This document shows positions 51,741 through 51,853 of a DNA stretch of 61,806 nucleotides, in pieces (positions within the stretch are counted from its first letter, which is position 1; each line of letters starts with the position of its first letter). The notes under the pieces were generated by a model that saw only the letters and a program-made list of their open reading frames with translations, made no database searches and had not been told where the DNA came from. This DNA is from a virus. The stretch covers positions 1-61,806 of IMG/VR virus record IMGVR_UViG_3300046479_000013, one strand, 5' to 3'. The position numbers and the translations under genes were made by a program.

Positions 51741-51853
51741 CTCAGATTAAAACGGGGTTGGGGTTTACGCGCTCTATCCACTAAGCTACATGGTGGGATT
51801 CGAACCCACGCCTCGCTGTTCGTAGCAGTTAACCAACACACCAACGACCTGAG
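51741..51853 (-). ncRNA. Scaffold RNA copy A around a permuted Arg-like tRNA
   Basis: P1 CTCAG/CTGAG, loop GTCGTT against GTTTTAAT, P2 GTTGG/CCAAC with a second pair GTT/AAC. It is a tandem neighbour of copy B; the two share GAGAAACTAT after P1 but differ by matched changes in both helices. Confidence 0.78.
51768..51828 (-). tRNA. Permuted tRNA-Arg(ACG) lacking an acceptor stem
   Basis: 3' half: CTG-CTACGAA-CAGCG, variable bases, T arm GTGGG-TTCGAAT-CCCAC. Only CATG separates this from the 5' half: TA, D arm GCTT/GAGC, then GCG. Joining the ends gives a perfect stem CGCTG/CAGCG with anticodon ACG. Both acceptor strands are missing, so this copy cannot be charged as it stands. Confidence 0.6.

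What the first reader, a model, noticed from the sequence alone, without database searches (positions are those of the whole stretch)
51768..51828. Permuted Arg(ACG) copy that lost its acceptor stem
The anticodon stem is restored perfectly on joining (CGCTG/CAGCG), but only CATG lies between the T arm and the D arm. Either this is a recent deletion, or the RNA has a role that does not need charging, such as a decoy for anticodon-binding enzymes or nucleases.
Basis: partly seen in the sequence, partly recalled or inferred. Interest (0 to 1): 0.7.

Follow-up and report, generated by a model that had tools for sequence, protein, structure and literature searches.

The report
Phage Y RNA mimicking a tRNA
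The supposed broken, back-to-front tRNA gene is a Y RNA, a small virus-encoded RNA that imitates a tRNA and carries a docking stem for the virus's own Ro60 protein; this copy lacks the acceptor-like arm, and many phage Y RNAs imitate even the tRNA anticodon loop, which the reference model of the family does not show.

Summary
In detail: on the minus strand, 51768-51828 reads anticodon hairpin, T arm, CATG, D arm, with no acceptor stem. But it is not a tRNA gene that decayed. The same contig encodes the partner, a Ro60 protein (29730-31301). A covariance model built only from Y RNAs of other viruses and bacteria finds this copy (73.7 bits, E 1.5e-21) and its neighbour (51859-51999, 93.1 bits, E 8e-28). 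Permuted order and an acceptor arm that is never charged are normal for the family. Two points are unusual. This copy lost the acceptor-like hairpin; one similar case was found (L168). And, unlike the Rfam YrlA consensus, 54 of 69 non-redundant Y RNAs carry a full anticodon arm (7-nt loop, U33, A38, base 37 following base 36 as in tRNA), with about 4 expected by chance; the imitated anticodon seems to vary faster than the rest. Favoured mechanism: a Ro60-tethered tRNA mimic that lures proteins recognising anticodon loops; that step is inferred. The contig carries up to eight Y RNA candidates.

The parts
51737..51856 (-). Y RNA 'Y-b', the finding: permuted tRNA-like domain with Arg(ACG)-type loop CTACGAA and no acceptor-like arm
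   Evidence: model R1 built without the window: 73.7 bits, E 1.5e-21; lax Rfam YrlA hit to the inner part, 21.8 bits
51847..51854 (-). 5' strand of the outer Ro60-binding stem of Y-b
   Evidence: pairs 7 of 8 with 51740-51747 in the R1 alignment
51740..51747 (-). 3' strand of the outer Ro60-binding stem of Y-b
   Evidence: as above
51833..51838 (-). 5' strand of the inner stem of Y-b (TGTTGG)
   Evidence: pairs 5 of 6 with 51756-51761
51756..51761 (-). 3' strand of the inner stem of Y-b (CCAACC)
51814..51828 (-). anticodon-arm mimic of Y-b: CTG-CTACGAA-CAG-CG; its last two bases (nt 42-43) pair with CG at 51768-51769 (nt 27-28)
   Evidence: sequence; family covariation
51793..51809 (-). T arm of Y-b
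51789..51792 (-). CATG, all that stands where an acceptor-like hairpin normally lies
   Evidence: other Y RNAs have 11-32 nt here
51771..51788 (-). TA plus D arm of Y-b
51859..51999 (-). Y RNA 'Y-a', neighbour copy with an Asn(GUU)-type loop and an acceptor-like hairpin (TGCGAGG/CCTCGTA)
   Evidence: R1 93.1 bits, E 8e-28; Rfam YrlA 31.5 bits
29730..31301 (-). Ro60 (Rsr) protein, the expected partner
   Evidence: vWA_Ro60 E 1.7e-64 and TROVE E 6.6e-45; up to about 45% identity to 'Ro-like RNA binding protein' of actinophages
47801..47937 (-). further Y RNA with a degenerate D arm
   Evidence: R1 34.4 bits, E 6.6e-9; stable Ro stem, fold z -3.0
44463..44580 (-). candidate Y RNA: Ro stem and T arm, no D arm
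   Evidence: Ro-stem scan; fold
48586..48689 (-). candidate Y RNA: Ro stem only
   Evidence: Ro-stem scan
48696..48827 (-). candidate Y RNA: Ro stem only
   Evidence: Ro-stem scan
49730..49920 (-). candidate Y RNA: Ro stem plus T arm and an acceptor-like hairpin
   Evidence: Ro-stem scan; R1 25.9 bits
49922..50000 (-). candidate short Y RNA: Ro stem only
   Evidence: Ro-stem scan

Best explanation
The element is the tRNA-like effector domain of a phage Y RNA. Its 5' and 3' flanks pair into a stem with the GGUCG motif that would dock on the phage's own Ro60 ring protein (docking inferred from the known family). The effector domain imitates a tRNA: D arm, T arm and a five-pair anticodon arm with an Arg(ACG)-type loop. 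The Ro stem enters between the positions equivalent to nt 28 and 29, which is why the tRNA order looks permuted. No splicing and no charging are needed. This copy has lost the acceptor-like hairpin but keeps the Ro stem and the anticodon arm. Most likely action (inferred, about 40%): the Ro-Y particle presents a tRNA elbow and anticodon loop to capture or compete with proteins that recognise tRNA anticodon loops, such as host anticodon nucleases induced by infection. The main alternative action is tethering an RNase such as PNPase to Ro60.
For: A model from 25 Y RNAs of other genomes gives E 1.5e-21 for this copy and 8e-28 for its neighbour. On that alignment 95% of cells pair, 23 of 33 pairs change on both sides and 0 of 500 shuffles reach this; all 8 outer-stem pairs, 2 of 3 hairpin pairs and both 27-28:42-43 pairs covary. 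The contig encodes Ro60. Of 32 contigs with such RNAs 30 encode a Ro60 domain, against 0 of 6 contigs where the same pattern had hit ordinary tRNA genes. Anticodon-arm mimicry: 54 of 69 non-redundant RNAs have the hairpin at the exact place, 4.3 expected and 9 at most in 200 shuffles; U33 50/54, A38 52/54, U36 with A37 31/33, G36 with G37 15/17. Compared with Y-a, helices of Y-b differ by compensatory swaps (for example CTC/GAG to CTG/CAG). In close relatives the imitated anticodon triplet differs at 0.30 per site against 0.06 in the T arm and 0.10 in the Ro strand. [quoted passage not shown]
Against: Rfam YrlA scores are below its gathering score (21.8 and 31.5 against 69). Single-sequence folding of Y-b is no better than shuffles (z -0.27). 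The Y-b junction rests on one metagenomic contig. No transcript, binding or decoy data exist here. The rapid change of the anticodon triplet comes largely from one group of mycobacterial prophages and mostly from position 35, so the pairs are not independent. Salmonella YrlA was not cut by the nuclease studied.
Confidence: 0.85

Rival explanations
1. The same Y RNA, acting only as a tether: the tRNA-like end recruits PNPase or another RNase to Ro60 for decay or processing of structured RNA, as in the D. radiodurans RYPER particle; the anticodon loop is a structural relic.
For: Known function of the bacterial Ro-Y RNP (quoted).
Against: A structural relic should not keep U33, the 36/37 rule and A38 while the triplet 34-36 changes faster than its surroundings. 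The Rfam YrlA consensus lacks the hairpin.
Confidence: 0.35
2. A genuine permuted tRNA gene whose precursor is circularised by splicing in the anticodon stem, as in red algae and some archaea; this copy lost its acceptor stem.
For: The anticodon stem is restored on joining; T arm precedes D arm.
Against: In related RNAs the acceptor arm is usually closed by a short loop (53 of 69 have at least 4 bp and a loop of 8 nt or less) and rarely shows CCA at the right place (3 of 69). The flanks form a covarying Ro stem rather than a splice motif. Ro60 co-occurs with these RNAs.
Confidence: 0.03
3. A decaying tRNA pseudogene or duplicate.
For: It lacks the acceptor stem; a real tRNA-Arg(ACG) with the same 7-nt loop exists at 40871-40947.
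Against: The Ro stem and all remaining helices pair, with compensatory differences from the neighbour; E 1.5e-21 to the Y RNA model.
Confidence: 0.05
4. The missing acceptor-like arm is an assembly or sequencing error, for example collapse of a hairpin between CATG repeats.
For: Metagenomic contig; CATG is its own reverse complement, so both strands of an acceptor stem ending in CATG would carry it; no second copy of this junction was found.
Against: A second Y RNA without the arm exists in an unrelated contig (L168:378-498, T arm-CTTCG-D arm). Copies in Y RNA arrays often lack one arm or another.
Confidence: 0.1

Closest known systems
YrlA (Rfam RF02553), bacterial Y RNA that mimics tRNA
   Same: Terminal Ro60-binding stem; T arm, then acceptor-like hairpin, then D arm, in permuted order; Ro60 gene in the same genome.
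   Different: Scores below the gathering threshold; a 3-bp, 7-nt anticodon hairpin sits where the Rfam consensus goes straight from CUA to a 4-bp stem; Y-b lacks the acceptor-like hairpin.
Y RNAs of actinophages with Ro-like RNA binding proteins (Gordonia phages Cashline, Sixama; Microbacterium phage FuzzBuster; Mycobacterium phages Farewell, Jedediah)
   Same: Same architecture, including the anticodon-arm mimic, some next to the Ro gene.
   Different: They keep the acceptor-like hairpin; in the window the Y RNAs lie 13-22 kb from the Ro gene among tRNA genes.
Permuted tRNA genes of red and green algae and Thermofilum (from memory)
   Same: Order of arms; interruption near the anticodon.
   Different: No splice structure and no free acceptor ends; a Ro-binding stem occupies the flanks.
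Phage tRNAs thought to evade anticodon nucleases (eLife 2023, PMC10264068)
   Same: Same host-phage setting and the same kind of loop.
   Different: Those are taken to be functional tRNAs; this RNA does not look chargeable.

Membership tests
Bacterial/phage Y RNA (Ro60-associated) | 5' and 3' ends form a Ro60-binding stem with a conserved motif | tested here: met
   Y-b 7/8 and 5/6 pairs with GGUCG; full-length R1 hit at E 1.5e-21; 8 outer pairs covary in relatives
Bacterial/phage Y RNA (Ro60-associated) | Encoded with a Ro60 orthologue | tested here: met
   TROVE + vWA_Ro60 protein at 29730-31301
Bacterial/phage Y RNA (Ro60-associated) | Binds Ro60 in the cell | not testable with these tools
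   needs co-purification
YrlA, RF02553 | Score at or above the curated gathering score (69 bits) | tested here: not met
   31.5 and 21.8 bits; Y RNAs of named actinophages also stay below (at most 52 bits)
YrlA, RF02553 | Permuted tRNA-like domain with T arm, acceptor-like hairpin and D arm | tested here: inconclusive
   Y-a has all three; Y-b has T and D arms only
YrlA, RF02553 | Modified by tRNA enzymes (dihydrouridine, pseudouridine) | not testable with these tools
   reported for YrlA
Permuted tRNA gene | Acceptor strands that can yield free 5' and CCA ends | tested here: not met
   only CATG between T and D arms; closed short loops in relatives
Permuted tRNA gene | Joined mature RNA | not testable with these tools
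   needs RNA-seq
tRNA pseudogene | Loss of pairing without compensation | tested here: not met
   helices kept with compensatory differences from the neighbour

The most novel reading that the evidence does not exclude
Actinophages and actinobacteria make Ro60-tethered RNA decoys that each copy one tRNA anticodon arm, with the anticodon switched quickly between relatives, to capture or saturate anticodon-specific host nucleases; the window's Arg(ACG) copy would show that the acceptor-like arm is dispensable for this.
Probability: 0.3. Interest if true: 0.85.

Novelty: new variant of a known kind. Interest (0 to 1): 0.55.

Why it matters
Phage Y RNAs are known but, as far as I could check, have no assigned role. 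If many imitate a complete tRNA, including a tRNA-grade anticodon loop whose identity changes quickly, they point to a testable partner class (anticodon-binding proteins, chiefly host anticodon nucleases) and link Ro60 particles to anti-phage tRNA cleavage. It also warns that 'permuted' or 'acceptor-less' tRNA calls near phage tRNA arrays may be Y RNAs that tRNA finders and Rfam thresholds miss.

Tried and rejected
Hairpin-ribozyme or group I permuted-intron reading of the shared flanks (a CAGAGAAAC match noticed by eye): dropped once the flanks proved to be a covarying Ro stem. Exact pattern for acceptor-less permuted tRNAs with a strict D arm found nothing; the looser one found only L168. 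A first Ro-stem criterion did not separate Y RNAs from shuffles and was replaced. A loose Ro-motif scan of the window was at chance (11 sites against 12.05 in shuffles); the stricter one found 7 sites against 0.4 expected, but it was tightened after seeing the first hits, so the weaker candidates remain candidates. DNA similarity to known phages of the region around the finding gave only short matches (2% of the query), none over the finding. Single-sequence folding of Y-b is uninformative. The founding papers on bacterial Y RNAs (PMC4201824, PMC10870794) are not held, so it could not be checked whether the anticodon-arm mimicry has already been described.

Full report
What is there. ARAGORN does not call it, and Rfam tRNA at gathering threshold does not either. 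A lax Rfam search of the region gave the key lead: both this element and its neighbour at 51886-51961 hit RF02553, YrlA, the bacterial Y RNA that mimics tRNA, at 21.8 and 31.5 bits, below the gathering score of 69.

The partner gene. A Y RNA should come with Ro60. The window has one: an ORF at 29730-31301 (-) with TROVE (E 6.6e-45) and the Ro60 vWA domain (E 1.7e-64). It is up to about 45% identical to proteins annotated 'Ro-like RNA binding protein', and 354 phage records, mostly of Mycobacterium, Streptomyces, Gordonia and Microbacterium, hold a match. The window is a 61.8-kb virus record classed by IMG/VR.

The family. RF02553 scans of phage records and pattern scans of viral and bacterial genomes gave many relatives. 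They share an architecture read directly from sequence: outer stem, GGUCG-like internal loop, inner stem ending in GGUUAYC, a hairpin, T arm, a closed acceptor-like hairpin, D arm, and the returning strands. I aligned 25 of them, none from the window. With the structure written out, 95% of cells pair, 23 of 33 pairs change on both sides, and none of 500 shuffles or slid versions comes close. The 25 were chosen to have the hairpin pairs, so their pairing rate in that helix says nothing, but their changes on both sides do. A covariance model of this alignment (R1) finds 51859-51999 at 93.1 bits (E 8e-28) and 51737-51856, the finding, at 73.7 bits (E 1.5e-21), both over the full model length. Of 32 contigs with such RNAs 30 encode a Ro60 domain, against none of 6 contigs where the search pattern had caught ordinary tRNA genes.

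Why it looks like a permuted tRNA. The Ro stem enters the 5' strand of the anticodon stem between the equivalents of nt 28 and 29. Reading along the RNA one therefore meets the 3' half of the tRNA, then the acceptor-like hairpin, then the 5' half. The acceptor-like arm is normally a hairpin with a short loop (53 of 69 have at least 4 bp and a loop of 8 nt or less), so these RNAs do not look chargeable in general. The question whether this copy 'lost' charging does not arise.

What is special about this copy. Between T and D arms other Y RNAs in the set have 11-32 nt; this one has CATG. One more acceptor-less case turned up, L168:378-498, with CTTCG. Other copies in tandem arrays lack the D arm or the anticodon arm instead. 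A likely origin is deletion of a hairpin between CATG repeats in an ancestor (inference). The copy is not decaying. Relative to its neighbour, the outer stem (CUCUG/CAGAG against CUCAG/CUGAG), the inner stem, the anticodon hairpin (CTC/GAG against CTG/CAG) and the T stem differ by changes that keep pairing.

The anticodon arm. In the Rfam YrlA consensus the inner stem leads through CUA to a four-pair stem, with no hairpin. In the RNAs studied here a 3-bp, 7-nt hairpin follows GGUUAY, and two further bases pair with the two bases after the D stem. Anchoring only on the T and D arms, without selecting for the hairpin, each of the five pairs exceeds 2000 shuffles. In the larger non-redundant set 54 of 69 have the hairpin at that exact place (4.3 expected; maximum 9 in 200 shuffles). 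Among them U33 is kept in 50, A38 in 52, base 37 follows base 36 as in tRNA (U36-A37 31 of 33; G36-G37 15 of 17), A36 never occurs, and the five bases before the T arm are usually AGGUC, a common tRNA variable loop. Triplets include UGU, UUU, GUU, UCU, UGG, GCU, CAU and ACG. Between close relatives the triplet differs at 0.30 per site against 0.06 in the T arm and 0.10 in the 5' Ro strand; some pairs differ only there. These pairs come mostly from one group of mycobacterial prophages and mostly from position 35, so this is suggestive only. The window copies show CUACGAA (Arg) and CUGUUAA (Asn), the same loops as the window's real tRNA-Arg(ACG) and tRNA-Asn(GTT).

More Y RNAs in the window. R1 finds a third at 47801-47937 (34.4 bits; fold z -3.0). 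A strict Ro-stem scan lists seven sites, all on the minus strand between 44.4 and 52.0 kb among the tRNA genes, against 0.4 expected; Y-b is an eighth that this scan misses. Because the scan was tightened after a looser one had been at chance, the sites without a T arm are candidates only. Tandem Y RNAs are common in relatives, and in the one Ro60 relative found in IMG/VR by protein search (L004) several GGUCG-type elements lie just upstream of the Ro gene.

Mechanism. Shown: sequence architecture, covariation, presence of Ro60, quality of the anticodon mimicry. Inferred from the known family: docking on Ro60, and recruitment of a partner by the tRNA-like end. Inferred here: that the partner recognises anticodon loops. 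Phages of actinobacteria face VapC-type anticodon nucleases, and phage tRNAs are thought to be shaped by them. A competitive-inhibitor role was suggested for Salmonella YrlA, which was not itself cut. The copy without an acceptor-like arm fits a partner that needs elbow and anticodon loop only. I put the decoy or lure reading at about 40% and a pure RNase tether at about 35%.

Status. It works like, and by most tests belongs with, the bacterial Y RNAs; it does not reach the curated threshold of Rfam YrlA, nor do the Y RNAs of named actinophages tested. The anticodon arm and the missing acceptor-like arm make it a new variant of a known kind. Whether the anticodon arm has been described before could not be checked, because the founding papers were not available.

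Noticed in passing
44463-44580, 47801-47942, 48586-48689, 48696-48827, 49730-49920, 49922-50000 (-): Six further Y RNA candidates with Ro-type stems among the tRNA genes, which would make up to eight with the pair studied.
   Followed up: partly
22192-22252 (-): tRNA-like copy in normal order, GTG-type loop, matching only positions 7-64 of the tRNA model: its acceptor and anticodon stems do not seem to pair.
   Followed up: no
42475-42550 (-): tRNA with anticodon CTA, possibly an amber suppressor (ARAGORN names it Pyl).
   Followed up: no
1902-3257 (+): Poly(A) polymerase/CCA-adding enzyme head domain with its RNA-binding domain, beside about 30 tRNA genes.
   Followed up: no
54238-55830 and 55724-56764 (-): Nicotinate phosphoribosyltransferase and a NUDIX plus cytidylyltransferase-like protein side by side, a likely NAD salvage pair.
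   Followed up: no
50378-50793 (-): Complete tmRNA (97.1 bits) next to a GIY-YIG-like ORF on the other strand.
   Followed up: no
L055, L102, L118, L312 and relatives: Near-identical prophage Y RNAs whose imitated anticodon switches between UGU, UCU and UUU with few or no other changes.
   Followed up: partly
54 Y RNA anticodon-loop mimics in related loci: Base 36 is U or G in 50 of 54, C in 4 and never A; no explanation.
   Followed up: no
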